A stretch of 21,174 nt of DNA from Candidatus Galloscillospira excrementavium (GTDB taxonomy: Bacteria > Bacillota > Clostridia > Oscillospirales > Oscillospiraceae), in the NCBI GenBank assembly GCA_018711785.1, contig DVHW01000107.1, forward strand, positions 1 through 21,174, written 5' to 3'. Under the pieces are notes generated by a model. That model saw nothing but the letters and a program-made list of their open reading frames with translations. It was not told the origin of the DNA and did no database searches. Positions 6,883 through 21,174 of this stretch are shown here, one piece after another (within the stretch, counting starts at the first letter, position 1; every line of letters starts with the position of its first letter). The position numbers were made by a program, and so were the translations under genes.

Positions 6883-6913
6883 TGTTTTTTGCCTATAAAA
6901 AGGAGGTTTGACC

Positions 6914-7249
6914 ATGAAAGCGGAAAAATCCCTGCTCTCCGGCAGCGCCGCCCTGCTGGCCCTCTCCCTGCTCGCCACCGGGGACATGTACGGCTACCAG
7001 ATGATCGCCGAGCTGGAGGCGCGCAGCGACCACACCTTCCAGATGAAGGAGGGGACCCTCTACCCCATCCTCCACGCCCTGGAGCGGGAGGGGGCCGTCC
7101 AGGCCTACGAGCAGGAGGCCCCCGGCAACCGCATCCGCCGCTACTACCGCATCACCCCTAAAGGCCGCAAGCTGCTGGAGGAGAAGAAGGCGGAGTGGAG
7201 GACCTTTTCCCGGGCGGTGAACGCCATCGTATCCCCCGCCCAGGCCTGA
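6914..7249 (+). CDS. PadR family transcriptional regulator
   Basis: A 111-residue winged-helix repressor of the PadR family. The N-terminal helices run LLSGSAALLALSLLATGDMYGYQMIAELEARS, the recognition region is FQMKEGTLYPILHALEREGAV (the GTLYPxLxxLExxG signature, about residues 40-57), and the wing is RIRRYYRITPKGRKLLEEKKAEW. The C-terminus is short, as in the small PadR subgroup. The ATG at 6914 is chosen over an in-frame TTG at 6908 because AAAAGGAGG (6898-6906) is 7 bases from it. The gene is immediately downstream of the palindromic promoter and upstream of HAAS-domain genes, a linkage seen repeatedly in Firmicutes. It probably represses this operon; the inducing signal is unknown. Confidence 0.92.
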   Translation: MKAEKSLLSGSAALLALSLLATGDMYGYQMIAELEARSDHTFQMKEGTLYPILHALEREGAVQAYEQEAPGNRIRRYYRITPKGRKLLEEKKAEWRTFSRAVNAIVSPAQA

Positions 7250-7282
7250 GGCCCCCTGTAACGACGGAAAGAAGGTAGACCC

Positions 7283-8775: not shown

Positions 8776-8834
8776 ACTGAATTTCCCTCCCCAACCCGGC
8801 AAAAACCCGCTGTCCGCGGAAAGGAGGTATCCCT

Positions 8835-9635: not shown

Positions 9636-10332
9636 CCGCCCCAAGCGCCCTCGGCGCACTCTCACACGGCGGCAGAAGCTCCTGCGGGACGCCCTGCTCC
9701 TCCCCCTGGCCCTCCTGGCGCTCTACGCCGCCCTGGACTTCCCCATCCCCACGGCGGAGCTGGCCCGCCGGGCCACCGAACGGAAAAACTTCTTCGGCCC
9801 CGGGGAGGTCCTGGCCGACATACCGGGCACAGAGCCCTACGGGGAGGGGCGCTCCGATTCTGATGACCGGTACTATTTGGTCCGCAGCGGGGACTGGTAC
9901 GCTCTGGAGTCTGTGCGCCCGGATGGCCTGGCCTGGGAGACCGGCTCACTGGCCTCCGTCCAAAACGACCCTGCCCTCCCCCTGGCGTTCTCCGCCCCCA
10001 GTTACCGGACCACAGATCCCCTCCTGGTGCTCCGCAATGACCCCGAGATCGCGGAGGTGGAGCTGCTCTTCCCGGTCTACCTGGTTTTTACGGACTACGA
10101 GTGGACCGGCGACCGCTTTGCCCTGTGCTCCGTCCGCTCTACCCAGCCGGTGGAGGACTGTTTTCTCCTGTCCGCCCCCATCGATTGGCTCTCCCACATT
10201 TCACCTCCCGTAGCCCGGGGGTACTCCGCCGACGGCCGCCTGCTCTACACCAGCCCCGTCCCGGAGGCGTGGGAGAGCTACGACTTCTCCCTGGACATGA
10301 CCACCATCCCCTTCGAAGAGCTCTACGACTGA
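9628..10332 (+). CDS. One-helix membrane-anchored protein, copy 2
   Basis: A 234-residue protein, function not recognised. A basic N-terminus (MADRPKRPRRTLTRRQK) precedes a membrane helix at about 19-38, giving an inside-to-outside anchor, then an extracytoplasmic domain of about 190 residues. It shares PTAELA, FGPGEVLA and SGDWYAL-type motifs with the product at 8059-8775. The ATG at 9628 overlaps the end of the HAAS gene by eight bases (ATGGCTGA) and has GAGGAGG eight bases upstream. It is the last gene of the PadR operon, followed by a strong terminator. Together with the preceding gene it forms the second copy of the duplicated pair. Confidence 0.72.
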   Translation: MADRPKRPRRTLTRRQKLLRDALLLPLALLALYAALDFPIPTAELARRATERKNFFGPGEVLADIPGTEPYGEGRSDSDDRYYLVRSGDWYALESVRPDGLAWETGSLASVQNDPALPLAFSAPSYRTTDPLLVLRNDPEIAEVELLFPVYLVFTDYEWTGDRFALCSVRSTQPVEDCFLLSAPIDWLSHISPPVARGYSADGRLLYTSPVPEAWESYDFSLDMTTIPFEELYD

Positions 10333-10346
10333 CCCCCAGCGCAGAA

Positions 10347-10386
10347 AAAGGCCCGCCGCGGACAAGTTCGTCCGCGGCGGGCCTTT
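10347..10386. terminator. Bidirectional intrinsic terminator between convergent operons
   Basis: AAAGGCCCGCCGCGGAC (10347-10363) pairs perfectly with its complement at 10370-10386 around AAGTTC. On the plus strand the stem ends in CTTT and is followed by CTGTTTG; on the minus strand it is followed by TTCTGC after the AAAGG/CCTTT base. It lies 14 bases after the last PadR-operon gene and downstream of the phage operon on the other strand, so it can stop both. Confidence 0.9.
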
Positions 10387-10468: not shown

Positions 10469-11035
10469 TCACTCCACCAGTTTCTCCAGCTCGCCCCAGG
10501 TCAGCCCCAGCGCCTCGATGTCTCCCCAGGTGTCGAATCTCTCCTCCATCATGGCCCAGGTGATGTACCAGTACACGTACTCCACCGCCAGGTGGCAGGG
10601 CAGGATGTCCTCGATGATCTTCCGCATCTCCTCGAACCCGTCGGGGATGCCGGGCACGTCGGGGAAGGTGACCTGCACCTGGCCCGGCGTGCCGGTCTCA
10701 TGGGCCAGGGCGTTGAGCCCGCAGCCCTTCAGGGTGTCGTTGATGGCCGCGAGGGTGAAGCTGTCCCCGCCGATGCGCAGCAGGGCCGCCAGGGCCGCCC
10801 GGCGGCGCTCCAGGGTGTCCGCCACCGGCGCGCGGGTGAGCAGCGCCTCCACCGCCGCAAGGCCCGCCCCCTCCGCCGTGTCCAGCAGCATCTCCCGCTC
10901 GGTCTCCTCCAGCGCCGCCGCCACGCCGTCCAGGCCCGCCCCCACGGCCTCCAGCTCCCCGCCGTTGATGGTGCCCTCCAGCCGGTACACCCCCAGGGGC
11001 CGCAGCAAGTCCTTCAGATAGTCCCCGTAGCCCAT
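10469..11035 (-). CDS. YmfQ/XkdU-like phage baseplate protein (DUF2313 type)
   Basis: A 188-residue protein in the position of PBSX XkdU, directly after baseplate J. It begins MGYGDYLKDLLRPLGVYRLEGTINGGELEAVGAGLD, typical of the YmfQ family that joins the baseplate wedge to fibres. An ATG overlapping the previous stop as TGATG (11035) is preferred to a GTG one codon upstream; GGGGAG lies eight bases upstream. In complete phages tail-fibre, holin and endolysin genes normally follow. Here nothing phage-like follows: it is the last gene of the operon, followed by repeat copy A and the shared terminator. Confidence 0.8.
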   Translation of the reverse strand: MGYGDYLKDLLRPLGVYRLEGTINGGELEAVGAGLDGVAAALEETEREMLLDTAEGAGLAAVEALLTRAPVADTLERRRAALAALLRIGGDSFTLAAINDTLKGCGLNALAHETGTPGQVQVTFPDVPGIPDGFEEMRKIIEDILPCHLAVEYVYWYITWAMMEERFDTWGDIEALGLTWGELEKLVE

Positions 11036-12090
11036 CACGTCATCTCCCCGATACTCAGCGTCCCCAGCACCGGCAGCACATCCTCGTCCACCGCCACGTC
11101 GGCCGCCGGGACGGTGATGGCGTAGTTGGCCACCCCGTCCACCGAGAACAGCAGGGCCCCCAGCCGGGCCAGGAGCACGTCCTGCCCCAGCCGCTCCCCG
11201 CCAAACCAGTTCTCGATGGCCGCCTCCACCCGGCCGGACACGTCGTCAAAGTCCGCCCCCTCCGCGGCCTTCACCGAGAGGGACAGGTTCACCGTCTGGG
11301 TCTCCGGGGCCCGGACGGCCACATCCACGGCGATCTCCCGCCGCTCGTCGAACCACGCCTCCAGCCCGTCCAGCAGTTCCTCCTCCGGTACGCCCTCCGC
11401 CGTGGCCACCACCACGTCCACCGTGCCGGTGCCCCGGCTCCGGGGCAGCACCACCGCCGCCGCCACGCCGGGGTAGGACAGGGCCCCCTGCTGGTAGAAG
11501 GCGGCGTTGGCCCCGTTGGGCAGGCGCTGGAAGGTCTCCAGCACCCGCTGGCGCAGTTCCTCGTCCCCCTCGGTCCCAGTCCCGCCGGTAAACGGGGCGG
11601 GATTGGTGCACCGGCTCACCCCCACCGGCGCCACCGCCATGGTCAGGATGCTCCCCGCGGCCACATTGCCCCCCGTCCCCGGCTCCACCGCCCGGGCGGG
11701 CACGTCTACATAGGTCTCCCCCGCACCCAGCACCGCCGCCTCGGTAGTCTCAAACCGCACCAGCCCCGCGGTCATGCACACCGTCCCCAGCGGGATGTCA
11801 AGGTCGGAGGACGCCGCCGCGTCGCACTGGAAGCGGATGGTCCCCTCCGCCTGGGCGGCCTGCCGCCGAGCCAGGCCTCGCAGCTGGGCGTGCCGGTCCA
11901 GAAACTCCCCCGCCGCCGTCTGGGGGAAGCACTGCCGCCCCACCCAGTCGGCCTGGACATAGAGGGCCTGCACCTGGGCGGCCACGGCGTAGAGCCGCAC
12001 CGCCAGGTCCCCGTCGCCACCGGCCTCCAGGCCGGTCCGCTGGGCGAAGTCGGCGCACAGTGCGCCGTAGATCTCTTCCACTGTCTTCAT
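11035..12090 (-). CDS. Baseplate J family protein (XkdT-like)
   Basis: A 351-residue baseplate wedge protein homologous in layout to P2 gpJ and PBSX XkdT. Visible features are an N-terminal helical segment (VEEIYGALCADFAQRTGLEAGGDGDLAVRLYAVAAQVQALY), the FLDRHAQLRGLAR motif at about 63-75, a beta-rich middle with TGGTGTEGDEELRQRVLETFQRLPNGANAAFY (about 170-200, the characteristic GxxxEsDeelR..l region), and a C-terminal domain. Length is normal. ATG start two bases before the previous gene's stop. Part of the contractile-tail baseplate. Confidence 0.92.
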   Translation of the reverse strand: MKTVEEIYGALCADFAQRTGLEAGGDGDLAVRLYAVAAQVQALYVQADWVGRQCFPQTAAGEFLDRHAQLRGLARRQAAQAEGTIRFQCDAAASSDLDIPLGTVCMTAGLVRFETTEAAVLGAGETYVDVPARAVEPGTGGNVAAGSILTMAVAPVGVSRCTNPAPFTGGTGTEGDEELRQRVLETFQRLPNGANAAFYQQGALSYPGVAAAVVLPRSRGTGTVDVVVATAEGVPEEELLDGLEAWFDERREIAVDVAVRAPETQTVNLSLSVKAAEGADFDDVSGRVEAAIENWFGGERLGQDVLLARLGALLFSVDGVANYAITVPAADVAVDEDVLPVLGTLSIGEMT

Positions 12091-12091
12091 G

Positions 12092-12442
12092 TCATCCCTC
12101 CAGCGCCACGGCGGCGGTCAGGCCGGTGCCGTTCCAGGTCAGGCGTACGGTCAGCAGCGCCCGGTCCCCGTCGCCGGCCAGCTCCACCGACTCGATGCTC
12201 AGCCCGTCCTCCCCCGCCAGGGCCTCGGCCACGTACTGCTCCGCCAGGCCCTGCCGCTGGCTGGCCCTGCACCGGGGCAGCCGGTGCAGCTGGCTCCCCA
12301 GCTCGGGCAAAAAGGGGAAGCTCCCCCGCCGCGCGGTCAGCTTCCACAGCACCCGCTGCAGCAGTCCGTCGCTCCCCTCAGCCCGGCGCACGCCCCCCGT
12401 CCCGTCGGGCAGGTAGTCCCCATCCCGCAGCATCAGTTCCAT
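12092..12442 (-). CDS. gp25/GPW-like baseplate protein (XkdS-like, DUF2634 type)
   Basis: A 116-residue baseplate wedge subunit. RRGSFPFLPELGSQLHRLPRCR (about 39-60) is the family hallmark, corresponding to the conserved Gp25-like core around a buried Glu. LAEQYVAEALAGEDGLSIESVEL and a final beta hairpin complete the fold. Position between the OB-fold protein and baseplate J matches PBSX. The first ATG has GGGGAG only three bases away, so a start at the in-frame ATG at codon 4 is also possible. Confidence 0.85.
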   Translation of the reverse strand: MELMLRDGDYLPDGTGGVRRAEGSDGLLQRVLWKLTARRGSFPFLPELGSQLHRLPRCRASQRQGLAEQYVAEALAGEDGLSIESVELAGDGDRALLTVRLTWNGTGLTAAVALEG

Positions 12443-12451
12443 CTTCTCCCC

Positions 12452-12829
12452 CTACTCTCCGTCAAACAGGCTCTCAATGGGCACGCCGTTGATGAGCACC
12501 CGGCCCATCAGCTCCACCGTGCCGTCGTTTCCCAGCCGCACCGCCGCGTTGCCCGGCCCGGAGGAGATGCGCACCTCCCCCGGCGTGCCCTCCCCCTCGG
12601 CCCGGGCGGCAGTCACACAGTAGGCCGGCCCGGCGCCGGCGTTTTTCAGCACCAGCACCTCCTGCCCGGGCGCCGGGGTCCACTGATAGCCCCCCGGGGC
12701 GTAGACCGCCATGGCCCGCCGCTCCCCGTCCAGGTAGACGCCGGTGTCCTTTCCCCCGATGGTGGCGAAGCCCGCCTGGGCCTCCCCCAGCCTGTCCCGC
12801 CGCCTCCGGCTCTGTCCGGAAAGCCACAT
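12452..12829 (-). CDS. OB-fold baseplate/spike-like protein (gpV-like, XkdR position)
   Basis: A 125-residue protein with the OB-fold style of baseplate assembly protein V: KDTGVYLDGERRAMAVYAPGGYQWTPAPGQEVLVLK followed by a C-terminal hydrophobic GNDGTVELMGRVLINGVPIESLF. Such proteins form the membrane-piercing spike or sit beneath the hub. It is shorter than phage gpV and lacks a visible beta-helical spike tip. The ATG at 12829 is preferred to GTG at 12835, because GAGGAG is eight bases from the ATG and only two from the GTG. It lies between hub and gp25-like genes, where PBSX has XkdR. Confidence 0.75.
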   Translation of the reverse strand: MWLSGQSRRRRDRLGEAQAGFATIGGKDTGVYLDGERRAMAVYAPGGYQWTPAPGQEVLVLKNAGAGPAYCVTAARAEGEGTPGEVRISSGPGNAAVRLGNDGTVELMGRVLINGVPIESLFDGE

Positions 12830-12844
12830 GTACACCGCTCCTCT

Positions 12845-13789
12845 CTAATCCTCCCGCCGCTCCAGGGTCAGCCGGGTGCTCCCCCCGTCCATCCCCATCC
12901 GGCTCTCGGCCCGGGCCACCCGCCACGCCCCGGTGAGGGCGGGGGTGTCCCGGGCCAGATCCACTTCCTCCCCCGGCCAGGCGGCAAAGGTGCCCGACAC
13001 CGTCACCTCCAGCGCCAGCCGCCCCTTCTTCGCCTCGGCGATCTGATAGGCCCCGCTGTACCGCATGGCGTCCCCGGTGCTCCGCCCCGGCATGGTAATC
13101 ACCCTGCGGCACCGGCCGCCCCGGCGGTAAAACTCCTCATCCCGGACGGTCTGGGTGGTCTTGCGCACCCGGTCCCGCACCAGCACCTCGGAGAGCGCGC
13201 CGTACCGCTCCTCCCGCCACCGCCAGGCCAGGGCCGCTGTCTCGCTGTCCAGGGTGAGCCGCCGCTGCGCGCCCCAGGGCGAGAGCACCAGCGCCCCGGT
13301 CCGGTCGAATCGGGGCTCCACGCCGCCGTAGTACCGCACGAAGGAGCGCAGCACCTGCCACTCGCTCTCCCCGCTCTCCACCGAGAAGCCCGGCACCGCC
13401 GGGAAGTCGGCCTTCTCCGCCACCCGGATGCCGTAGGGCTCCACATGGTCCCGCAGGATGTCCTCCAGGGTGGCCACCTGGTAGTCGGCGCTCTCGGCCT
13501 CGTTGTCCAGCAGCAGGGCCGCCATGCCCCGGCCGGATACCTCCAGCGCACAGCCGTCCATGTCCCAGGTCAGCTCGTACTCGTCCACCCTGCCCCGGAA
13601 CAGCACCTCTCCGTCCTCCACGGCGGTGAACTCCACCGCGTCGGACAATGCGCCGTCCACCGCCGTCCCCCAGGGGCAGCGCACCTCAAAGCTGTCGCAG
13701 GGGGTCCCGGTCCCGTAGCTCAGGGTCCAGGACAGGGCCTCCGGCAGCTCCCACTTCCGCCTGTCGTACCCGGTCAGATAGAAGGTCAC
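12845..13789 (-). CDS. Baseplate hub protein (XkdQ-like, gpD/gp27 type)
   Basis: A 314-residue protein at the position of PBSX XkdQ, following the LysM gene. It begins VTFYLTGYDRRKWELPEALSWTLSYGTGTPCDSFEVRCPW, the usual first hub beta domain. The segment ATLEDILRDHVEPYGIRVAEKADFPAVPGFSVESGESEWQVLRSFVRYYGG (about 120-170) matches the gpD/XkdQ core, and it ends with a beta domain carrying SGTFAAWPGEEVDLARDTPALTGAWRVARAESRM. The start is a GTG overlapping the previous TGA as GTGA. The frame stays open upstream into the LysM gene, but that extension is out of frame with real coding sequence and rejected. Confidence 0.88.
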   Translation of the reverse strand: MTFYLTGYDRRKWELPEALSWTLSYGTGTPCDSFEVRCPWGTAVDGALSDAVEFTAVEDGEVLFRGRVDEYELTWDMDGCALEVSGRGMAALLLDNEAESADYQVATLEDILRDHVEPYGIRVAEKADFPAVPGFSVESGESEWQVLRSFVRYYGGVEPRFDRTGALVLSPWGAQRRLTLDSETAALAWRWREERYGALSEVLVRDRVRKTTQTVRDEEFYRRGGRCRRVITMPGRSTGDAMRYSGAYQIAEAKKGRLALEVTVSGTFAAWPGEEVDLARDTPALTGAWRVARAESRMGMDGGSTRLTLERRED

Positions 13790-14388
13790 TTCACCCGCAC
13801 CTCCTCGCCCGGGTAGATGAGGTTCGGGTTTTTGATCTGGGGGTTGAGGGCGATGACCTCCGCCAGGCCCACGCCGTACTCCCGGGCGATGCCCCACAGG
13901 GTCTCCCCCCGGCGCACCGTGTGGCGGACGGCAGAACCGGCGGCACTCTCCGCTTCTATACCGGCGCTCCCCGCCCCGCCGTCCGCGCTCTCTCCTGCCT
14001 GTCCCGTCCCGTACTCCTTCAGGCCCGGTGTCTCCGACGGGCCCTCCCAGAAGGTGAAGGTGTAGCTCACGTAGTCCGGCCGGGGCTCCTGCCGCAGGGA
14101 GAGCTCCACGAAGTAGGCGCTGGCCGGCTGCCATACCGGGTGGATGAGGGGCCCGGTCCCCCCGGCGTAAAAGAGGGTGGCCAGCTCCTTGAACTGGTCG
14201 TAGGCCTCCGGTCCCACGAACTCCCCCTCTCCCTTCAGCACCCGGTAGCTCCGCCCCAGGTCCTGGAGGTGGTAGACCCCCATGGGGAACTTCTGCACCG
14301 CCATGTCCCGGTGGTACTCGATGGTGTACACCCTGGGGTTGTGGGGCCACACATAGTCCTTGTAGCGCATCGCCGCCAGCTCTGCCAT
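13786..14388 (-). CDS. LysM-domain baseplate protein (XkdP-like)
   Basis: A 200-residue protein with an N-terminal tail-hub-associated domain (about 1-125; WPHNPRVYTIEYHRDMAVQKFPMG), an Ala/Gly/Glu-rich linker (126-152) and a C-terminal LysM domain (153-200, HTVRRGETLWGIAREYGVGLAEVIALNPQIKNPNLIYPGEEVRV) expected to bind peptidoglycan or organise the baseplate. This matches PBSX XkdP and phage gp53-like proteins. ATG with GGGGAGAGG upstream. In PBSX the gene directly follows the tape measure; here it directly follows a 200-residue protein instead. Confidence 0.9.
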   Translation of the reverse strand: MAELAAMRYKDYVWPHNPRVYTIEYHRDMAVQKFPMGVYHLQDLGRSYRVLKGEGEFVGPEAYDQFKELATLFYAGGTGPLIHPVWQPASAYFVELSLRQEPRPDYVSYTFTFWEGPSETPGLKEYGTGQAGESADGGAGSAGIEAESAAGSAVRHTVRRGETLWGIAREYGVGLAEVIALNPQIKNPNLIYPGEEVRVK

Positions 14389-14408
14389 TCTGTCCTCTCC
14401 CCGCTTTC

Positions 14409-15011
14409 TCAGTAGAGGGTAAATCCCCCGTCATACCGCCGGGCGTCCCGCTGGAACACCCGGTCCAGCGCCTCCGGCGTCCAGCCTCCGGCCCTGTTCG
14501 CCCCATCCGGGGCAACACTCGCCTGCCCCACCGGCCGGGACAGCTCTATCCCGGCGGATGGGGCGTCCGTCTGCCGCCCCATCCGCTCCACCCGCCCGCT
14601 CTGGGCCAGCTCCCGGTAGAGCCTCTCTGCCGCCGAACGGTCCCCCGCCGCCGGAATAATACCCGCAGTTGCCCCGTCCTCCGGGCGCGCCGCACCCCCT
14701 GCCGTCCGCAGGAGGTCCGCCGCCTGCCCTCTCCAGTCCGCCGCCCGGCGCAGGTTCTCCACTATCGACGGGGCGGAGCCCTCTGCCCCGTCCTCTGCCG
14801 TGGCTTTCTCCGCCCTGCCGCCGGAAACGGCGCTCGATGTCGGACCTTCGCTGACACGGGACAGCTCTGTCCCGCGTCCTTCGTCCGCCCCATCCTCTGT
14901 CCGCCGGACCGCCAGTCTGTCCAGGGCCGCCCCACACCACGCCAGGGTCTCCCCGTCCTCCTCGTCCTCCGGCCCCTGTCCGTCCAGGAGCCACTCCAGA
15001 TAGTCTGTCAT
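14409..15011 (-). CDS. Uncharacterised protein occupying the tape-measure position
   Basis: A 200-residue protein that I do not recognise. The N-terminus is acidic (MTDYLEWLLDGQGPEDEEDGE), the middle (about 40-165) is Ala/Gly/Glu/Arg-rich and looks disordered, and the C-terminus is compact (WTPEALDRVFQRDARRYDGGFTLY). No membrane helix or long hydrophobic coiled coil is present, unlike a tape measure. Third positions in the middle are more mixed than in neighbours (GGT ATT ATT, CGT, ACA, TCG codons), suggesting relaxed selection there. The ATG overlaps the chaperone extension stop as ATGA. It could be a vestigial or very short length-determinant, or a protein that caps the tube; neither is shown by the sequence. 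Confidence 0.65.
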   Translation of the reverse strand: MTDYLEWLLDGQGPEDEEDGETLAWCGAALDRLAVRRTEDGADEGRGTELSRVSEGPTSSAVSGGRAEKATAEDGAEGSAPSIVENLRRAADWRGQAADLLRTAGGAARPEDGATAGIIPAAGDRSAAERLYRELAQSGRVERMGRQTDAPSAGIELSRPVGQASVAPDGANRAGGWTPEALDRVFQRDARRYDGGFTLY

Positions 15012-15645
15012 GCCATCTCCCCCCGCCGCAGCCGCTCATACCGCTCCCGGTCAAAGGAGGCGTTCTCCCCCACGCCGTCCCCGGTTGTCTCCCGGCCGCA
15101 GACCGGGCAGCGCTCCGCCTCGGCCCGAGCCCGGCACTCCGGACACAGCCGGGAAAGCTCCTCCTCCTCGTCCAACAGCAGGTTGAGGGCACACCACAGG
15201 TAGTCCCGGTCCGTCATCTCCCGGGCCCGCTTTTCGGTGGGCAGCGCCTGAAAAATCCGGAGCACACGCCAGCGAAGGCGCTCCTCGCTCGTGCGCTCCA
15301 GCCTTTTTTTATGGCGTCCACCCGCCCCTCTCCCGCCGACGGGGAGGGGTTCTCCTCCCCGTCGAACCGGGCCCACCGCCCGGCCAGCTGGGCGATCTCC
15401 CCGGCGGTCATGCCCCGCAGGGCGGCCTCCCCGTCGGGGAAGACGGGCCTGCCGTCCCGCTCCAGCGCCCGGGCCAGGAGGCAGGCGTTGGCGCACAGGG
15501 CCCGCTCCCGCCCGTTCCGGCAAAGTTCTTCGGCCTCCCGCCGGGCCTCCAGCACCTCCATGGCGGAGAGCAGCCGCAGGCTCCGTCCGTCCTCCAGCTT
15601 CAGCCTCCGCCGCCCGGAGAGCAGGGAGGATTCTTCCCCTGTCAT
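15008..15645 (-). CDS. Tail assembly chaperone, -1 frameshift fusion product (XkdN + downstream ORF)
   Basis: Predicted 212-residue product in which ribosomes read 15645-15304, slip back one base on the A7 run and continue in the -1 frame to a stop at 15008. The added 98 residues begin RLERTSEERLRWRVLRIF and contain MTDRDYLWCALNLLLDEEEELSRLCPECR plus a second CPVCG, a likely four-cysteine zinc site. This is the G/GT arrangement known for tail assembly chaperones of many tailed phages. Alternatively the downstream part may also be made alone as 69 residues from ATG at 15217, which overlaps the zero-frame stop as ATGA. Both routes may operate. Confidence 0.7.
15214..15645 (-). CDS. Tail assembly chaperone, zero-frame product (XkdN-like)
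   Basis: A 143-residue zero-frame product in the slot between tail tube and tape-measure position, where PBSX has XkdN. It begins MTGEESSLLSGRRRLKLEDGRSLRLLSAMEVLEARREAEEL and has a helical domain with FPDGEAALRGMTAGEIAQLAGRWARF. After the slippery run the zero frame adds GWSARARSAF... to a stop at 15214; this tail looks less protein-like than the -1 frame. The ATG at 15645 overlaps the tube stop as ATGA. The chaperone is expected to help tube polymerisation around the length-determining protein. Confidence 0.8.
   Translation of the reverse strand: MTGEESSLLSGRRRLKLEDGRSLRLLSAMEVLEARREAEELCRNGRERALCANACLLARALERDGRPVFPDGEAALRGMTAGEIAQLAGRWARFDGEENPSPSAGEGRVDAIKKGWSARARSAFAGVCSGFFRRCPPKSGPGR
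15259..15310 (-). promoter_or_regulatory. Programmed -1 ribosomal frameshift signal
   Basis: Seven A residues (15310-15304) are read in the zero frame as A-AAA-AAA after GTG GAC GCC AT, the exact X-XXY-YYZ phase for a -1 slip. Four bases later a stem forms between GGAGCGCACG (15299-15290) and CGTGTGCTCC (15268-15259), extended by AGCGA (15289-15285) with TCGCT (15275-15271) across a two-base bulge. The overlapping -1 frame is open and protein-like. Confidence 0.75.
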
Positions 15646-16034
15646 CCGGCCGCCACCTCCAGCCGCCGGGCCGCCACGATGGTGATCTTCTCCACCACCA
15701 TGGCCCCCAGTGCCCCGGTCTCGGCGATGTCGCTCCACTGGCACCCGGCGTAGATGATCTTCCGGTCCGGCTTGCAGATGACCAGGCTGAAGTCCTCCAG
15801 GTCGTGGAAGTTGATGCCGTCCTGAATGGCCTCGTCGGTGGCGTAGAGCCTGGTCAGCTCGATGACGTGGCTGCGCGCTCCCGGGATGGTGGCCACCGGC
15901 TCCCGCTCGCCGAAGGCCTCCACCGCCGTGCTGTCCCGGCGGGTCCGGGCGGAGTAGCTCTGGACCACCGCCACCTTTTTGCCCTCCACCTCCAGGTAGA
16001 TGTCGCTGCTGGTGGGAAATCCCGCGATCTTCAT
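15642..16034 (-). CDS. Phage tail tube protein (XkdM-like)
   Basis: A 130-residue tail tube subunit, directly downstream of the sheath. It begins MKIAGFPTSSDIYLEVEGKKVAVVQSYSARTRRDSTAVEAFGEREPVATIPGARSHVIELTRLYA and continues as a compact beta-rich protein (DFSLVICKPDRKIIYAGCQWSDIAETGALGAMVVEKITIVA), as for PBSX XkdM. Monomers stack as rings to form the inner tube. ATG with a GGGGGAGAG tract close by. Length matches the family. Confidence 0.9.
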   Translation of the reverse strand: MKIAGFPTSSDIYLEVEGKKVAVVQSYSARTRRDSTAVEAFGEREPVATIPGARSHVIELTRLYATDEAIQDGINFHDLEDFSLVICKPDRKIIYAGCQWSDIAETGALGAMVVEKITIVAARRLEVAAG

Positions 16035-16046
16035 GCTCTCTCCCCC

Positions 16047-17087
16047 TTACACGCTGATGTGCGCGGTCAGCCAGATCTGGTTGACGCCGTGGGTCACCGT
16101 AAAGGAGAACTCCACCAGGCACACCGTGGGGTCGGCCTCGCTGGCCGTCACCGTCACGTTGTCGTAGCCGGTGATGATCTCCCGGCTCAGCCGGTCCTCC
16201 AGCTCCAGCACCACCTGGGAGCGGATGGCCCCCCGGCTCTGCTCGGTGTTCTTGGCCCGGCGGAAGCGGCTGCGCAGGGCGTTGCGGATGCCGGGGATGA
16301 CCTCGTCCACGATGAGGATGGTGCTCAGCTCCCGCCAGGTGGCGTCGGCCGCCTCTCCGGTCTTGGTGCGGGTGGTGATGCCCCGCACCACCGTCGTTTC
16401 GCCCCCCGACTGCTCCAGGGCGGTCACGCCGCCCAGGATGAGGGTGTCCAGCTCGTTGTCGTCAAAGCTCCTCTCCAGCTCGCCCAGGCCCAGCACCTCC
16501 GCGCCCCCCAAGGGCAGCGCCGGATCGCTCTCCCCGGCGATGACCCCGGCCACGGCGGCGGCCACGGAGCCCGCCGTGCCGCTCTTTTCGCAGGGGGCGG
16601 CCAGCACCACCCGCTCGGAGTTGATGTCCCCCGCCCGCTGGGCCAGCTGGGCCGCCGTTTCACCGGCGCCCCCGGGCACCACGGCGATGCGCTCCCGCCG
16701 CGCGCCGGAGGCCTCCTCCACGCTGTCCCGCAAATCCTGCTGCACTGTGAGGGTGGCGCTGTCGCACACTGTCACCGCCACGTCCTCCTCCGCGGCCAGC
16801 AGGGCGAAGGCCGCCTCGTACTCGTCGTCCTCCTCCACCGGCACGGCCAGCACCGCCCCCGCGCCGTTGAGGAACAAAAGCCGCACCAGCCCGGTCAGGC
16901 TGTCCCCCGCGCCGAAGGCGGTCACCGCCTCCTCGTACCGGCCCAGCCGGTACAGCGTCCCCGCCGTGCCGCCCTCGCTCTTGGCGGCGATGGCCACGGT
17001 CCGGCTCCCGCCCCGGCCGCGGACCACCGAGGACGCGTCGTAGGCCGAGTACACCCCCGGCCGCTCATGGATCGTCACACTGCTCAC
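16047..17087 (-). CDS. Phage tail sheath protein (XkdK-like)
   Basis: A 346-residue contractile tail sheath subunit. The N-terminus SSVTIHERPGVYSAYDASSVVRGRGG is the typical sheath start, followed by a variable domain. The conserved C-terminal domain carries TWRELSTILIVDEVIPGIRNALRSRFRRAKNTEQSRGAIRSQVVLELEDRLSREIITGYDNVTV and VCLVEFSFTVTHGVNQIWLTAHISV, the strand-exchange arm region. It is shorter than the PBSX sheath (about 466 residues) but similar to clostridial prophage sheaths. The start is a GTG overlapping the previous stop as GTGA, with GAGGAGAG upstream. Confidence 0.93.
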   Translation of the reverse strand: MSSVTIHERPGVYSAYDASSVVRGRGGSRTVAIAAKSEGGTAGTLYRLGRYEEAVTAFGAGDSLTGLVRLLFLNGAGAVLAVPVEEDDEYEAAFALLAAEEDVAVTVCDSATLTVQQDLRDSVEEASGARRERIAVVPGGAGETAAQLAQRAGDINSERVVLAAPCEKSGTAGSVAAAVAGVIAGESDPALPLGGAEVLGLGELERSFDDNELDTLILGGVTALEQSGGETTVVRGITTRTKTGEAADATWRELSTILIVDEVIPGIRNALRSRFRRAKNTEQSRGAIRSQVVLELEDRLSREIITGYDNVTVTASEADPTVCLVEFSFTVTHGVNQIWLTAHISV

Positions 17088-17581
17088 TGTGTTCTCTCTC
17101 CTCTCACGATAAAGTCCAGGAAGGCCCCGCCCTCGTCGGCCACGGCGTAGAGGTAGGCCTCGCACACCGCCTCCGCCGGGTACTTGAGCAGCCCGGCGGC
17201 GCTGTCCCAGGCCATCTCCCCCGCCGAGAGCTCCAACGGCTTCAGCCCCGCCGGTCCCCCCTGCTGGAGGGCCTGGGCCAGGGTGTCGAAGGCCTTCTGC
17301 AGCGCCTCGCCCCCCTCCGCCCCGGCGTACAGGTCGATGCCGAAGGTGATGCGCATCCGCCTTCCGTACAGCTCCTCCCAGCGCCCCTGCTGGGCGTTGT
17401 ACCGCTCCCCCAGGTAGTCCCGGAAGCCCGCCGGTCCGCCCTCAAAGCCCCGGATGGACACGGCGGCCGCCGGGGCGTCCGTCCGCGTCCTCTGCCGGGC
17501 CGGATAGGCGGAGAGGGCGTCCAGCCCCGCCTGCCGCAGGTATTCGGTCATGCTCTCCCGGATCTGGTCCAGTCCCGTCAC
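17084..17581 (-). CDS. Phage tail completion/terminator protein (XkdJ-like)
   Basis: A 165-residue protein between the head-tail connector genes and the sheath, the PBSX XkdJ/DUF6838-type position. It begins TGLDQIRESMTEYLRQAGLDALSAYPARQRTRTDAPAAAVSIRGFEGGPAGFRDYLGERYN and has ITFGIDLYAGAEGGEALQKAFDTLAQAL, with alternating strands and helices as in tail terminator proteins. GTG start overlapping the previous TGA as GTGA. It would cap the tail tube and join it to the neck. Confidence 0.78.
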   Translation of the reverse strand: MTGLDQIRESMTEYLRQAGLDALSAYPARQRTRTDAPAAAVSIRGFEGGPAGFRDYLGERYNAQQGRWEELYGRRMRITFGIDLYAGAEGGEALQKAFDTLAQALQQGGPAGLKPLELSAGEMAWDSAAGLLKYPAEAVCEAYLYAVADEGGAFLDFIVRGERTQ

Positions 17582-17904
17582 GCCTCTCCCTCCTCATCTC
17601 TGGGCTCCAGCATGGCCCACCAGTGGGAGAGCCTTTCCCCCACATAAATGGGCCGGGCGGTCTGTACATCATAGGCCCGCCCCAGGTACTCCGCCCAGCC
17701 CCCCTCCGGCGGCTGGGCCGTCCCCAGGTAGAGCAGGCGCTCCCGCCGCCGCAGGCCCAGGGGGGTGGGGAGGGTGTCTCTCCACCCCTCCCCTCTCTCC
17801 CGCACCGGCTGGACAAAGGCCCGGACCTCCACGGCCGCGCCCTCCCCCGCCGGGTGGAGGGTGACGGCCTGTCCGTACCGCTCCAGCAGCCCCTCCAGCG
17901 TCAT
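17578..17904 (-). CDS. Phage head-tail adaptor/stopper protein (XkdH-like)
   Basis: A 108-residue protein, MTLEGLLERYGQAVTLHPAGEGAAVEVRAFVQPVRERGEGWRDTLPTPLGLRRRERLLYLGTAQPP..., beta-rich and ending in HWWAMLEPRDEEGEA. The pattern (short N-terminal helix, then a barrel with RERLLYLG and PIYVGERLSHWWAMLE) resembles the head-closure/stopper family to which PBSX XkdH belongs. The ATG at 17904 overlaps the previous stop as ATGA; the longer upstream open frame only shadows the preceding gene and is rejected. Confidence 0.75.
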   Translation of the reverse strand: MTLEGLLERYGQAVTLHPAGEGAAVEVRAFVQPVRERGEGWRDTLPTPLGLRRRERLLYLGTAQPPEGGWAEYLGRAYDVQTARPIYVGERLSHWWAMLEPRDEEGEA

Positions 17905-18266
17905 CCCGGCACCCCCCGGAAGGAGAATGCCCGGTCCCGGAGGTAGGGCCCCATGACCTCTTCCGCCTGCCGGCGCAGGCCGGCGGCGTCCTCCAGCGCG
18001 GCGCCGCCCTCCGCCCGGCGGATGGTCAGGTCCCCGGCGGAGAAGCTCTCCACCCCATCCGCGCTCTCGCCGCCCCGCAGCAGGGACAGGGCCAGCCACG
18101 CCGCCGCCACCGGGAAGGCGCTGCCGCAGTCCTCCGCCGAAAGGCCCTCCCGCAGCCGCCCGGCCAGCTCCTCGGCGGCCTGGGCGCACAGGAGCTTCAG
18201 GGTCTCCTCCCGTGCCTCGCCGGCGCCGGAGAGGTCCATGGCCAGCTTCAGGATCTTCTCCTCCAT
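17901..18266 (-). CDS. Phage head-tail connector protein (gp6-like/YqbG position)
   Basis: A 121-residue mostly helical protein (MEEKILKLAMDLSGAGEAREETLKLLCAQAAEELAGRLREGL... PVAAAWLALSLLRGG) that follows the capsid gene. Position and helical make-up match head-tail connector proteins such as HK97 gp6 or YqbG. The C-terminal part LRRQAEEVMGPYLRDRAFSFRGVPG is basic. The ATG at 18266 overlaps the capsid stop as TGATG with GGAGG four bases away; a GTG one codon earlier is less likely. Confidence 0.7.
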   Translation of the reverse strand: MEEKILKLAMDLSGAGEAREETLKLLCAQAAEELAGRLREGLSAEDCGSAFPVAAAWLALSLLRGGESADGVESFSAGDLTIRRAEGGAALEDAAGLRRQAEEVMGPYLRDRAFSFRGVPG

Positions 18267-19297
18267 CACACCTCCAGCACCTTGGCGGCGTCCTCGTAGA
18301 TTTTGGCGAACCCGCTGATGCTGGTGATGGCGGCCCGCTCCAGCTGCCGGTCGATGAGCTTGTCGTACTCCACCGTCACCTCGCCGCTCTTCACCATCTC
18401 CAGAGCGTAGTTGCGGTCCAGACCGATAAGGGTGCCGCTAGCCAGAGCGGAGGTGCGCAGCAGCTGGGCCCCCAGGGGGGTGATGAGCCTGCCGCTGCCC
18501 TGGAAGTCCAGCCCCGCCATGGGGTCCCGGAACTCGGACATTTTCAGCAGGGACACCAGCACGTCCCCGGGCACCAGGAGGGTGTTCATCTCATAAGGGG
18601 CGAACTGGGCCCAGAAGTCCACCAGGGTGCTGTAATCAAAGGTGCTGCCCTCGCCGCCGATGGGCTTGGTGCCCACGGTGAAGGACTCCGCCGGGTTCTC
18701 GTTGCCGTCGCCGTTCAGCAGCACGTCGATGGCGTCCTCCAGGTGCATCCGGCTGATGTGGGCACCGATCTGCCGCAAAGTCACCGAAAACAGGTCCAGC
18801 TTCTGGTAGCGGACCGCCTCGTAGGAGGCCACCAGCATCCGCCCCCGCTTGTGGAGCTGCACCAGGTTGGCCTTGGTCTTGATCTGGGTCTGGGGGATCT
18901 CGGCCCCCTCCTCCACCCGCTTGAGCTCCTTCTGGTCCTGGTCGGGCTCCGAGGCGATGGAGCGGTAGTCCATCCCCTCCACCTGGGTCACAGTGGCGGT
19001 GATGGCGGGCAGGAGGTCGTCCTCCTCCATGCCCTGCCGCACCGACCGGGCGATGTACTCGGGGAAGAGCACGGCGGACTCGCTGGTGCGGAAGAACTTC
19101 TCCACCGGGTCGCTGCCCGCGCCCCGCACCCTGATGTCGAACCGCTTGAGCTGGCGCTGATAGGCGTCCAGCCCCTCCAGGGGGGTGCCCCGGTATTGCT
19201 CGCTGGGGTCGCAGTGCTCCAGCACCTGGGTGAAGGAGCGCCCCGCCTCCTGATACATGCCCTTTTCCAGTCTCACGCTGTCACAGTGATAGGTCAT
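18266..19297 (-). CDS. Major capsid protein (HK97 fold, XkdG-like)
   Basis: A 343-residue major head protein. The N-terminal 70 residues (MTYHCDSVRLEKGMYQEAGRSFTQVLE...) form an arm. The core includes ITATVTQVEGMDYRSIASEP, the E-loop region KANLVQLHKRGRMLVASYEAVRYQKLDLFSVTLRQIGAHISRMHLEDAIDVLLNGDGN and the P/A-domain stretch MNTLLVPGDVLVSLLKMSEFRD, ending with VEYDKLIDRQLERAAITSISGFAKIYEDAAKVL. This is the style of Firmicutes PBSX-like capsids. A strong AAGGAGGA precedes the ATG. Presence of capsid, protease and connectors shows that the particle has a head, unlike headless tailocins. Confidence 0.88.
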   Translation of the reverse strand: MTYHCDSVRLEKGMYQEAGRSFTQVLEHCDPSEQYRGTPLEGLDAYQRQLKRFDIRVRGAGSDPVEKFFRTSESAVLFPEYIARSVRQGMEEDDLLPAITATVTQVEGMDYRSIASEPDQDQKELKRVEEGAEIPQTQIKTKANLVQLHKRGRMLVASYEAVRYQKLDLFSVTLRQIGAHISRMHLEDAIDVLLNGDGNENPAESFTVGTKPIGGEGSTFDYSTLVDFWAQFAPYEMNTLLVPGDVLVSLLKMSEFRDPMAGLDFQGSGRLITPLGAQLLRTSALASGTLIGLDRNYALEMVKSGEVTVEYDKLIDRQLERAAITSISGFAKIYEDAAKVLEV

Positions 19298-19334
19298 CTC
19301 ATGTCCTCCTTTTTTCTCGTGGCGGGTGCGCCGG

Positions 19335-19682
19335 TCACAGCCGGATGGTGGCGGTGGTCCCGTCCGCCATGGCCACCAGGAACTCGCCGCCCGTGTCGCT
19401 CTGCCCCGCCTTCTTCACGCCGCCCTTGCCGTCGCCGCACAGGGTGACAAAGCCGGGCTTCACCGTGCTGTCGCTGCACGCCACCCGGGCAAAGCCGCCC
19501 ACCTGCACTGCGGCGCAGCCCCCTCTGGGCTCCAGGGCCACGCCGCAGGGCCGCTGGCCGCTGGCGCAGGCGGCCACCTGGCCGTCCTCACCCAGGGTCA
19601 CCACCTGGCCCCCCGCCACGCCGTCGGCCGCCGGCAGGGTGACCACCATCTCGCCGATGCCCTCACAGGAAAGTTTGCTCAT
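19335..19682 (-). CDS. Small head protein, decoration-like
   Basis: A 115-residue Gly/Val/Ala-rich beta protein between protease and capsid, where DUF2190 or gpD-like decoration proteins are usual. It has repeated short strands with VTLGEDGQVAACASGQRPCGVALEPRGGCAAVQVGGFARVACSDSTVKPGFVTLCGDGKGGVKKA and ends FLVAMADGTTATIRL. Six cysteines are noticeable for a phage coat protein. ATG at 19682 is chosen because of AAAAAGGAGG about eight bases upstream; an in-frame ATG at 19727 lacks a ribosome site. Identity is inferred mainly from position and fold style. Confidence 0.65.
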   Translation of the reverse strand: MSKLSCEGIGEMVVTLPAADGVAGGQVVTLGEDGQVAACASGQRPCGVALEPRGGCAAVQVGGFARVACSDSTVKPGFVTLCGDGKGGVKKAGQSDTGGEFLVAMADGTTATIRL

Positions 19683-19711
19683 CTCTCGTTCCTCCTTTTT
19701 ATTCCGCCCGC

Positions 19712-19725
19712 GCCCCCGCAGGGGC
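19712..19725 (-). repeat. Small UGCG-loop hairpin in the protease-decoration gap
   Basis: On the minus strand GCCCC-TGCG-GGGGC forms a 5-bp GC stem with a UNCG-class tetraloop 20 bases after the protease stop. It shares its loop with the GC stems of the two structured repeats. It may stabilise the 5' end of the capsid message after processing, or be a minor relative of the repeat. Confidence 0.4.
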
Positions 19726-19743
19726 ACGGGGTGGTTTCGCCGT

Positions 19744-20685
19744 TCAGATCAGGAATGCCCCGTCCTCTTTCCGGGTCTCTCCGCCACCTCTCCGGGGCAG
19801 CTGGGTCCGGACCGGGAACCGCCCCTCCAGCTGGGCCTCATAGGCCCGCTTGAGCTCCAGCAGCTCCTCCTCGCCCAGGGCCCCGGCGATGCGGAGCAGG
19901 GTCTCTGTCCCCAGGCCCTTCTGCGCCAGGCCCCCCAGCCGGGCCACCTCCCGGCGCAGTCCGGCCAGGTACCGCCGGCCCAGCTCGGCCTCCCGCTCCA
20001 GCTCCGCCAGCTCTCTCTGCCGCTCGGGCCAGGGCGCCGCCAGCTCCCTCAGGCTCCCCGCCGCCCCGCCAGAGCGGCCCAGGCCCTTTATGACCCCCGC
20101 CCTGGGCTGGGCGGGCACCGCCACAAAGGACCACTCATAGGCGTCGGTGACCCCGGTGAGCTCGGCCCAGCACAGCTTCCCGTTGTAGGTCCTGCCCCGC
20201 ACGTGGTGGCAGTGTTCGCCCCCCTGCTCCTCGCCGCACACCGAGCACACCGCGCGCTCCACAGCGCAGCCCACGCTGACCTCCCGCTTGATGCCGCCCT
20301 CGATCTCGGCGATGAGTTCCCGGTTTCCCTCGGTGCGCAACATATAGGCGTACCCCTTCAGGTAGCAGTACCGGTCCCCCGCCCTGGTGAGCACATTGGG
20401 CTCCTCCAGCACCTCGGTCCGGTAGATGCGGGCGGTCTGTCCCCTGGCGCTCCACTGGTGATCAAAGATGCCGCTCTTGCCCACGAAGAGCTCCCCCAGC
20501 TTTTCCAGGGCCTCCCGGCCAAACCGCTCCCCGTCCCGGTCCACCTCGTTGTCGCACAGCCGCACCGAGAACAGATACACCTCGTCCGCCTCCAGCGGTT
20601 TCTTGCTGAAGGCGTTGACCCGCTCCAGCTCCCCCGGGCTCACCTCTGCCTCCCGGTTCACGTCCGCTTCCTTGCTGATGTCCAT
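19744..20685 (-). CDS. Prohead protease with scaffold-like C-terminus (XkdF-like)
   Basis: A 313-residue protein upstream of the capsid genes. The protease part (about 30-200) has the HK97-type layout: VYLFSVRLCDNEVDRDGERF, candidate catalytic His76 in GIFDHQWSA, candidate Ser137 in REVSVGCAV, and AYEWSFVAVPAQPRAGV. Between the serine and the last strand sits a Cys/His-rich insert (CSVCG 147-151, HCHH 158-161), a possible metal site. The C-terminal 110 residues are charged, helical and coiled-coil-like (RQRELAELEREAELGRRYLAGLRREVARL), suggesting a fused scaffold. ATG at 20685 is nine bases from AGGAGG (20700-20695); the frame is open upstream to 20826 but that part runs into the repeat block and is rejected. 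Confidence 0.82.
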   Translation of the reverse strand: MDISKEADVNREAEVSPGELERVNAFSKKPLEADEVYLFSVRLCDNEVDRDGERFGREALEKLGELFVGKSGIFDHQWSARGQTARIYRTEVLEEPNVLTRAGDRYCYLKGYAYMLRTEGNRELIAEIEGGIKREVSVGCAVERAVCSVCGEEQGGEHCHHVRGRTYNGKLCWAELTGVTDAYEWSFVAVPAQPRAGVIKGLGRSGGAAGSLRELAAPWPERQRELAELEREAELGRRYLAGLRREVARLGGLAQKGLGTETLLRIAGALGEEELLELKRAYEAQLEGRFPVRTQLPRRGGGETRKEDGAFLI

Positions 20686-20730
20686 CCCATGACCCCTCCT
20701 TGATTTTTCATCCGCTCCATCCTGCCTCGC

Positions 20731-21022
20731 CCGCCGCAGACGCGGCAGACGGAAGTCCGTCAAAAAGCCTCGCAGAGTTCGCGTCCGCAGACGCGAAAAA
20801 AGTCCAGTCGGTTTTTCCGGGGACACCCTCCAGAGGGCCTTCTCTTGCCCTTACAGGGCAATTCACCTTGTTTGCCTCGGAAAAAACACTTCTCGGCCCG
20901 CAAACGTGCGGGTGGGCCCTCCCACGCAGGTCCGCCAGCGCGCTGCCGCGGGCCGCATCCCGCTCGAAAAAGTGGCGAGACACTTTTTCGAGGTGCTTCG
21001 CTCCGCCGCATACGCGGCAGAC
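20731..21022. repeat. Hairpin-rich noncoding block with structured repeat, copy B
   Basis: The 433-base gap 20686-21118 shows no credible gene. It contains several inverted repeats: CTCGAAAAAGTG/CACTTTTTCGAG (20963-20992), CCCGCA-AACG-TGCGGG (20897-20912), CGCGTC-CGCA-GACGCG (20781-20796), and two near-identical 20-base units at 20731-20750 and 21003-21022 (19 of 20 identical). The stretch 20759-20783 matches 10393-10417 at 23 of 25 positions. On the minus strand its order (AAGTG hairpin, then a UGCG-loop stem, then AACTCTGCGAGG and a T-run) repeats that of copy A, with about 165 extra bases between the first two hairpins. Confidence 0.65.
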
Positions 21023-21118
21023 CTCTCTCATTCCGCTGCTCCGCCTCTCCCCGCACGACCCGCTTCGCTGGGCTCGTGTGGGGGCCCCAACCTGGTCGAG
21101 TCGTCCCGGCCCGGCCCT

Positions 21119-21174
21119 TCAGCTTTTCCGGCCTTCCCGCTCTGTCCGCAGCTCCTCCGCCTGCTCCCGGTACA
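21119..21174 (-). CDS. C-terminal end of an upstream gene (partial; possibly phage portal)
   Basis: Seventeen codons, YREQAEELRTEREGRKS, run from the window edge to a TGA at 21119-21121. The charged helical end with a stop, on the same strand and upstream of the protease, fits the C-terminus of a portal or other head gene of this operon. The identity rests on PBSX gene order (portal before protease) and not on sequence similarity. The gene starts beyond the window. Confidence 0.4.
   Translation of the reverse strand, partial: YREQAEELRTEREGRKS

What the first reader, a model, noticed from the sequence alone, without database searches (positions are those of the whole stretch)
10469..21174. 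Compact headed contractile phage operon lacking tape measure, tail fibre and lysis genes
The operon encodes protease, capsid, connectors, sheath, tube, chaperone and a complete small baseplate, in PBSX order. It has no long tape-measure gene between the chaperone and the LysM protein, and after the YmfQ-like gene it stops at a terminator facing a host operon, with no fibre, holin or endolysin. Codon usage matches the host. All structural frames are intact, which argues against simple decay. A retained, head-bearing particle without its own lysis or receptor genes fits a domesticated element, for example a PBSX-like killer particle or gene-transfer-agent-like system. Terminase and portal must be outside the window for any of this to work.
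Basis: partly seen in the sequence, partly recalled or inferred. Interest (0 to 1): 0.72.

Follow-up and report, generated by a model that had tools for sequence, protein, structure and literature searches.

The report
Inherited phage-like particle gene cluster
This stretch is most of a small phage-like particle cluster that many gut bacteria of one family seem to have inherited from parent to offspring for a long time, which fits a tamed virus kept for packing pieces of the bacterium's own DNA, although nobody has yet seen this particle or its DNA.

Summary
Window 20685-10469 (- strand) encodes a headed contractile particle in PBSX-like order, with no long tape-measure gene and no fibre or lysis gene before a strong terminator. 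TerS, TerL and portal lie on contig C211 of the same genome. In 59 of 59 named loci spanning TerL to gpI, 12 core genes keep order and strand. The tape-measure slot holds a short protein (window 200 aa) with a conserved C-terminal motif. Of 300 family genomes 128 carry the capsid gene, 127 once. Head proteins diverge in step with RecG (r=0.92, 50 genomes); ordinary prophage capsids do not (r=0.11, 24 genomes). dN/dS is mostly below 0.3. recG lies within 25 kb downstream in 13 of 20 genomes with both on one contig. TerS here lacks an N-terminal extension that some relatives keep. Some lineages lack sheath and tube but keep terminase and capsid; no headless form was found, though most searches began from the capsid. 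Best reading: a domesticated, gene-transfer-agent-like DNA-packaging particle. A 2026 paper reports GTA-like packaging in Oscillospiraceae without an operon; this is a candidate. Packaging, release and delivery are inferred.

The parts
21119..21174 (-). 3' end of the portal gene (rest on contig C211 of the same genome); a repeat-rich spacer follows down to about 20690
   Evidence: same bases as the portal 3' end on C211
19744..20685 (-). putative head maturation protein (XkdF position; protease label by position only)
   Evidence: PHROG 16951 E 4e-127, unknown function; no Pfam function
19335..19727 (-). putative head decoration/stabilising protein
   Evidence: PHROG 4588 head and packaging E 9e-15
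18266..19297 (-). major capsid protein, 343 aa
   Evidence: PHROG 3922 E 8e-111; PF25209 E 1e-15
17901..18269 (-). putative head-tail connector 1
   Evidence: position and conservation; no family match above cut-off
17578..17904 (-). putative head-tail connector 2
   Evidence: position; no family match
17084..17581 (-). putative connector / tail terminator
   Evidence: PHROG 25177 E 5e-37, unknown function; position
16047..17084 (-). tail sheath
   Evidence: PHROG 279 E 2e-45; PF17482 and PF04984; PDB 5li2 E 7e-6
15642..16034 (-). putative tail tube
   Evidence: PHROG 27038 E 8e-62, unknown function; position after sheath
15214..15645 (-). putative tail assembly chaperone 1
   Evidence: position; no family match
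15008..15214 (-). putative tail assembly chaperone 2, with zinc-ribbon-like cysteines
   Evidence: position; zinc-ribbon matches below cut-off
14409..15011 (-). short protein in the tape-measure slot, 200 aa, C-terminal RDARRYDGGF motif
   Evidence: aligned with 23 relatives; R188, D189, R191, R192 invariant in 24 of 24
13786..14388 (-). XkdP-like baseplate protein with LysM
   Evidence: PF01476 E 4e-13, PF07157 E 1e-4; PHROG 184 hub E 1e-8
12845..13789 (-). baseplate hub (gp44-like)
   Evidence: PHROG 177 E 4e-36; PF22255
12452..12835 (-). membrane-piercing spike (gpV/Mu gp45-like)
   Evidence: AlphaFold model, Foldseek 9ki1_V and 3qr8
12092..12442 (-). baseplate wedge W (gp25-like)
   Evidence: PHROG 975 E 5e-6, PHROG 43 E 2e-4
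11035..12090 (-). baseplate J (XkdT-like)
   Evidence: PHROG 6 E 1e-72; 28% to a gene annotated XkdT in Bacillus phage BalMu-1
10469..11038 (-). tail protein I (XkdU/YmfQ-like by position)
   Evidence: PHROG 521 E 1e-22
10347..10386 (.). intrinsic terminator, 17-pair stem

Best explanation
The window holds the head-to-baseplate part of a domesticated phage cluster (TerS-TerL-portal-XkdF-like-MCP-connectors-sheath-tube-chaperones-short tape slot-baseplate) that was present in an ancestor shared by several Oscillospiraceae genera, has no integration or replication genes and, here, no lysis or fibre genes, and has been inherited largely vertically under purifying selection. Shown: gene content, divergence in step with the host, selection, absence in this TerS of an N-terminal extension that some relatives have. 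Inferred: expressed in some cells, it builds a small capsid with a very short contractile tail; TerS without its DNA-binding part lets TerL fill heads with pieces of host chromosome rather than its own genes, as described for RcGTA; particles leave by lysis with genes encoded elsewhere, or next to the cluster in relatives, and may pass DNA to kin. That is a gene-transfer-agent-like system.
For: Completeness: TerS, TerL and portal on C211; 59 of 59 loci spanning TerL-gpI keep 12 core genes in order and strand (from the 80 best capsid matches). Copy number: 128 of 300 family genomes, own included, 127 with one match; 47 of 247 genomes of the order, five families, 46 with one. Vertical: identities of four head proteins vs RecG r=0.917 (n=50), four tail proteins r=0.878 (n=42), Mantel p 0.001 each; best match in own genus 38 of 40 (RecG 39 of 40). 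Control: PF05065 capsids occur in 25 of 51 of these genomes, 0-3 copies; for 24 usable ones r=0.11, element r=0.93 in the same genomes. Selection: dN/dS mostly below 0.3 in nine species pairs of five genera. Position: recG within 25 kb downstream in 13 of 20 same-contig genomes, six genera. TerS: Terminase_2 model covered 58-129 of 141 in the window's genome (below cut-off), 6-128 in L130; the alignment shows about 60 extra N-terminal residues in L128, L130 and L132. RcGTA TerS lacks the specific DNA-binding domain (PMC7947584, passage). Retention: 0 of 9 f23 loci and 0 of 7 g69/g71 genomes gave a sheath hit, while all have TerL and capsid; of 23 loci found by sheath or J 19 hold the capsid, 3 are cut at the contig start, 1 is a 30% J match to something else. 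GTA-like packaging is reported in Oscillospiraceae with no operon named (PMC12946183).
Against: No particle, expression or packaged DNA has been seen. Long TerS forms exist in some relatives, so loss of specificity is not family-wide, and for a second long TerS (L131) the Pfam model matched only 50-130, so the domain assignment is weak; the TerS model found no structural relative. Genome searches started from the capsid, so loss of the head would be under-counted; the sheath and J scans covered viral contigs only and used single proteins. Seven of 20 same-contig genomes have recG more than 50 kb away. Evolution is not wholly clonal: baseplate dS exceeds that of RecG in most g23 pairs, and in pair G225/G246 head dS (about 0.08-0.22) is below and baseplate dS (0.40-0.47) above RecG's 0.29; TerS dS is saturated in some pairs, so exchange among relatives is likely. 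No formal test of tree congruence was run. Absent from 172 of 300 family genomes and from the one same-genus genome tested (73% complete). The own genome is 71% complete and its contig ends 160 bp above TerS.
Confidence: 0.73

Rival explanations
1. PBSX-like killer: the cluster makes a headed contractile particle that may pack host DNA but does not deliver it, and kills sister cells with its tail.
For: PBSX-like gene order up to XkdU (PBSX order recalled); sheath, putative tube and spike intact in the window; RBP-like gene after gpI in 13 of 106 loci; baseplate genes diverge faster than head genes.
Against: Sheath and tube are missing in f23, g69 and g71 forms while terminase and capsid stay, the reverse of what selection for killing should keep; no RBP gene in the window.
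Confidence: 0.17
2. Capsid-forming satellite or small phage that borrows integrase, replication or lysis from helpers and still moves.
For: Size 10.7-13.5 kb from TerL to gpI; 41 relatives listed in the viral-contig collection; a second prophage with its own integrase-, TerS-, TerL- and portal-like genes begins about 130 bp after gpI in IMGVR 2728369350; recG linkage lost in some genomes.
Against: Divergence in step with RecG, one copy in 127 of 128 carriers, no integrase listed within about 9 kb in 12 carriers (lists cut at low scores).
Confidence: 0.06
3. Decaying prophage remnant with no function.
For: Lysis, fibre, integration and replication genes are missing in the window.
Against: Frames open, dN/dS mostly below 0.3 in five genera, 59 of 59 loci with all 12 core genes.
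Confidence: 0.04

Closest known systems
FpGTA of Faecalibacterium (PMC12946183; abstract, sections 9, 10 and 26 read, other parts in passages)
   Same: GTA-like cluster in the same bacterial order; TerS-TerL-portal-head order; no replication genes; [quoted passage not shown] second locus with baseplate, fibre and lysis genes. Relatives of the window in family f23 lack sheath and tube and run about 10.2 kb (L379), near the 10.5 kb of podovirus-like FpGTA I.
   Different: The window's cluster has sheath, tube and a baseplate in one operon; sequence homology to FpGTA could not be tested because no named Faecalibacterium locus was reachable here.
PBSX of Bacillus subtilis
   Same: Gene order terminase-portal-XkdF-capsid-sheath-tube-chaperone-(tape)-LysM-hub-spike-J-XkdU (order recalled); packages 13.4 kb host fragments (PMC12946183 passage).
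   Different: No long tape measure and, in the window, no fibre or lysis genes; about half the size (PBSX size recalled); one copy co-diverging with the host across genera.
RcGTA of alphaproteobacteria
   Same: Vertically inherited head-tail cluster of similar size (recalled); TerS without specific DNA-binding domain (PMC7947584 passage).
   Different: RcGTA has a non-contractile tail (recalled) and other hosts; relation of the proteins not tested.
Lactobacillus phages iLp84, PLE3 and kin
   Same: TerL about 50% identical over 97%.
   Different: Full phages of 34-42 kb; they are not among the capsid or sheath matches.

Membership tests
Gene transfer agent | packages random host DNA, no preference for own genes | not testable with these tools
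   needs particles and sequencing; only indirect support from PMC12946183
Gene transfer agent | structural and packaging cluster without integration or replication genes | tested here: met
   recombinases in 12 carriers with truncated lists
Gene transfer agent | vertical inheritance in step with host, purifying selection | tested here: met
   with signs of exchange in baseplate genes
Gene transfer agent | TerS without specific DNA-binding domain | tested here: inconclusive
   short TerS in the window's genome lacks the N-terminal extension of L128, L130, L132, but the extension is tied to a DNA-binding domain only by one Pfam match and recall; fold search gave nothing
Gene transfer agent | parts at several loci | tested here: inconclusive
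   orphan RBP-like gene in four g23 genomes and a distant one in a fifth; none found in the window's genome
FpGTA | homologous TerL, portal and capsid | not testable with these tools
   no named Faecalibacterium locus reachable
FpGTA | podovirus-like, no contractile sheath | tested here: not met
   sheath in the window; f23 relatives do lack it
PBSX | gene order from TerS to XkdU | tested here: met
   against recalled PBSX order
PBSX | long tape measure (XkdO) and late fibre/lysis genes | tested here: not met
Tailocin | headless, no terminase or capsid | tested here: not met
Temperate prophage | integrase, repressor and replication genes in one unit | tested here: not met
   the integrase-like gene next to L405 belongs to a second prophage

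The most novel reading that the evidence does not exclude
An order-wide family of inherited gene transfer agents exists in Oscillospirales; its older form has a very short contractile tail (about 20-45 nm if the slot protein acts as tape), and the tail-poor, podovirus-like agent now published from Faecalibacterium arose from such a form by losing sheath and tube, while terminase and capsid were kept because DNA packaging is what selection maintains.
Probability: 0.42. Interest if true: 0.87.

Novelty: new variant of a known kind. Interest (0 to 1): 0.74.

Why it matters
GTA-like DNA packaging was reported in Oscillospiraceae faecal particles without an operon being named (PMC12946183). This cluster is a concrete candidate in cultured Flavonifractor, Pseudoflavonifractor and Oscillibacter, so the question can be tested by one deletion. 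It would be a contractile-tailed agent, the tail-loss series would show which parts of a phage a host keeps, and it would add a route of gene flow among common gut bacteria.

Tried and rejected
Structure of TerS: model pLDDT 78, best PDB match E 1.2, so nothing is drawn from it. PDB search with the capsid profile: nothing. Pfam annotation of the proteins after gpI failed on wrong coordinates and was not repeated; RBP, holin, XhlA-like, M15 and CHAP labels, and HflX, spore protein and alcohol dehydrogenase, are my reading of the sequences (recalled). M15 and CHAP seeds hit the same loci, so I count them together as hydrolase-like. The slot protein had one sub-cut-off Pfam match to Mu gp45 (E 0.0021), taken as chance. 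The idea that the cluster is the late module of a full phage in IMGVR 2728369350 was rejected: the neighbour has its own integrase-, repressor-, HNH-, TerS-, TerL- and portal-like genes. The idea that a fibre gene of the window's genome sits elsewhere: two weak hits (C35, C13) lie in what look like other phage remnants, and the g23 orphan gene has no match in G000. I do not know whether the MT835xxx records come from purified particles, so their chromosomal flanks are not used as evidence of packaging. A partial second TerL hit is a repeated 3' end. Literature searches listed no paper on this cluster beyond PMC12946183; most subscription papers and preprints are not held. The 51 carriers were picked by me for long contigs and spread of genera; G013 dropped out for want of a RecG match, G219 from the capsid control for a stop codon. 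The frames that end next to LysM include spurious ones; only those with the motif are counted, and their starts are uncertain.
Full report
What is there. The window is a whole contig (C16, 21,174 bp) of a draft genome of 1.8 Mb in 281 contigs, 71% complete. On its minus strand, from 20685 down to 10469, lie a putative head protein in the XkdF position, a decoration protein, the major capsid protein, three putative connectors, sheath, putative tube, two chaperone frames, a 200-aa protein in the tape-measure slot, an XkdP-like LysM protein, hub, spike, W, J and I. The spike's model matches Mu gp45 and P2 gpV. After gpI comes a 17-pair terminator at 10347-10386, then convergent host genes. TerL (73% to the Flavonifractor sp. 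An10 protein) and portal (79%) are on contig C211 of the same genome, with a TerS frame before them. The first bases of the window on that strand repeat the portal's last codons, so the two contigs very probably meet at a repeat-rich spacer.

How general it is. Of these 80, 59 have both TerL and gpI, and all 59 have 12 core genes in the same order on the same strand, over 10.7-13.5 kb; the other 21 lack one end in the DNA held. Being the best capsid matches, they are near relatives. Among 300 family genomes, own included, 128 carry the capsid, 127 of them once; two of these matches are partial, and one genome has a second, partial match (36 of 73 genera). Among 247 genomes of the order, own included, 47 carry it, in families f1, f7, f14, f23 and f25 (tool labels; f1 is taken as Oscillospiraceae from record titles), 46 of them once. 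In the first sample of 60, 14 carry it, the own genome among them; the one other genome of the same genus, 73% complete, does not.

Vertical inheritance. I took 51 carriers, chosen for long contigs and spread of genera; 50 had a RecG. Pairwise identities of four head proteins follow those of RecG (r=0.917, Mantel p 0.001), four tail proteins too (r=0.878, 42 genomes). The best match lay in the own genus for 38 of 40 genomes, against 39 of 40 for RecG. Trees were built but not formally tested for congruence. As a control, ordinary HK97-type capsids (PF05065) occur in 25 of the 51 genomes in 0-3 copies; for 24 of them (one dropped for a stop codon) identity does not follow RecG (r=0.11), while the element's head proteins in the same genomes do (r=0.93). 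Between species of nine pairs in five genera dN/dS of the cluster's genes is mostly below 0.3; the highest are 0.47 (spike) and 0.45 (TerS). In most g23 pairs dS of head genes is near that of RecG, but TerS dS is far higher and baseplate dS mostly higher; in G225/G246 head dS is below and baseplate dS above RecG's. So the cluster is inherited, with some exchange, above all in the baseplate. RecG lies within 25 kb downstream of the cluster, always on that side and in 12 of 13 cases on the same strand, in 13 of 20 genomes with both on one contig, from six genera; in the other seven it is more than 50 kb away. In 30 genomes they are on different contigs, and one gave no RecG. Genus g81 shares a rearranged order in 4 of 4 genomes looked at. 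Listed integrases (PF00589) and large serine recombinases (PF07508) in 12 carriers lie at least about 9 kb from the cluster, nearest in G116; the lists were cut at low scores, and in the own genome only 160 bp above TerS are known.

The tape-measure slot. In 72 of 72 named loci with tube and LysM found, the interval between them is 492-1551 bp and has to hold the chaperones too. The frames with the motif that end at the LysM gene are about 134-294 aa; in 24 of 24 aligned copies R, D, R and R of the C-terminal RDARRYDGGF motif are invariant. The middle varies in length and looks disordered, not like the long helix of a usual tape measure. At 0.15 nm per residue (recalled) it would set a tail of 20-44 nm. 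Whether it acts as a tape or only ties the hub to the tube is open.

Packaging. TerS of the window's genome matches the Terminase_2 model from 58 to 129 of 141, below cut-off; L130 matches 6 to 128, L131 only 50 to 130 though it is long too. L128, L130 and L132 share about 60 N-terminal residues that the short forms of the Flavonifractor and Pseudoflavonifractor clades, and also of some Oscillibacter-named MAGs (L117, L118), lack. In proteins of this kind the N-terminus binds DNA (recalled). [quoted passage not shown]

What is lost and what is kept. None of 9 f23 loci gave a sheath hit (one a weak tube hit); the three read frame by frame (L379, L382, L391) have no room for one, and in L379 the cluster with a following 155-aa gene runs about 10.2 kb. 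An HflX-like gene is next in L069, L379 and L382. None of 7 genomes of g69 and g71 gave a sheath hit; four were read and keep head genes, connectors and at most bits of tail, as does record MT835508. In f25 some loci have a sheath hit (L383, L384, L388) and two do not (L385, L386); f7 has one (L387). Scans of viral contigs with sheath and J gave 23 further loci on 21 contigs, some known before: 19 hold the capsid, 3 are cut at the contig start before it, 1 is a weak J match elsewhere. I found no headless form, but genome searches began from the capsid. As far as this sample goes, terminase and capsid are held most firmly, which speaks for DNA packaging rather than killing as the kept function.

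Lysis and fibre. Of 106 loci (some from one genome) with at least 1.5 kb after gpI, 70 have nothing recognised there, the window among them; 9 have an RBP-like carbohydrate-binding gene, 4 that gene plus a holin-like one, 3 a holin-like gene, 12 a cell-wall-hydrolase-like gene (5 of them with small membrane proteins), 8 an XhlA-like gene (labels are mine). In four genomes of genus g23 a lone RBP-like gene (three are 80-83% identical to the fourth) sits elsewhere, next to a spore-protein gene in three of them; a fifth genome has a 47% copy. This hints that receptor-binding genes have moved to a second locus.

Comparison with print. PMC12946183 (Nat Commun, Jan 2026; abstract, sections 9, 10, 26 and passages read) describes FpGTA in Faecalibacterium: a 10.5 kb head operon plus, in some strains, a 5.5 kb operon with baseplate, fibre and lysis genes, particles of about 40 nm with about 9 kb DNA and no visible tails. 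It reports GTA-like packaging in Oscillospiraceae (Onthomonas, 3 of 25 events), while only one of four MAGs searched, a Faecalibacterium, gave an operon. The present cluster fits that gap. Homology with FpGTA is suggested by order, size and the sheathless f23 forms; I could not test it. In phage records: TerL 50% to Lactobacillus phages, J about 28-32% to Mu-like and other phages, capsid 22-27% to a few large or faecal phages besides faecal records at 52-69%, sheath only two unannotated faecal records.

Verdict. Domesticated and mostly vertically inherited: very likely (about 0.92). Packaging of host fragments: likely (about 0.74). Delivery to other cells: open (about 0.5). It is a new variant of a known kind.

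Noticed in passing
L288 (G000:C211) about 1400-1866 and 1-291; window 20690-21119: The 3' ends of terL and of portal are repeated in the spacers that follow them; this probably broke the assembly.
   Followed up: partly
recG in G090, G086 and G200 (L282-L284): RecG reads as one frame of 767-919 aa with extra residues near position 404, possibly an intein or inserted domain.
   Followed up: no
L221-L224 (genus g81): Shared rearranged order: decoration and capsid genes stand between terL and portal.
   Followed up: partly
L312-L314, L320 (G116, G156, G190, G023): Lone carbohydrate-binding RBP-like gene, beside a small acid-soluble spore protein gene in three of the four.
   Followed up: partly
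L405 from 11755; L416: A separate prophage with its own integrase- and terminase-like genes begins about 130 bp after gpI in IMGVR 2728369350.
   Followed up: yes
L299-L301 (MT835508, MT835769, MT835952): GenBank 'Bacteriophage sp.' records from Mexican faecal samples hold the cluster between chromosomal genes (ribosomal operon, recG).
   Followed up: partly
window 6908-10332, +: A PadR-like regulator and three further genes converge on the cluster; homologues flank it in several Flavonifractor-like genomes.
   Followed up: no
window 15008-15214, -: Second chaperone frame carries paired CxxC motifs like a zinc ribbon.
   Followed up: no
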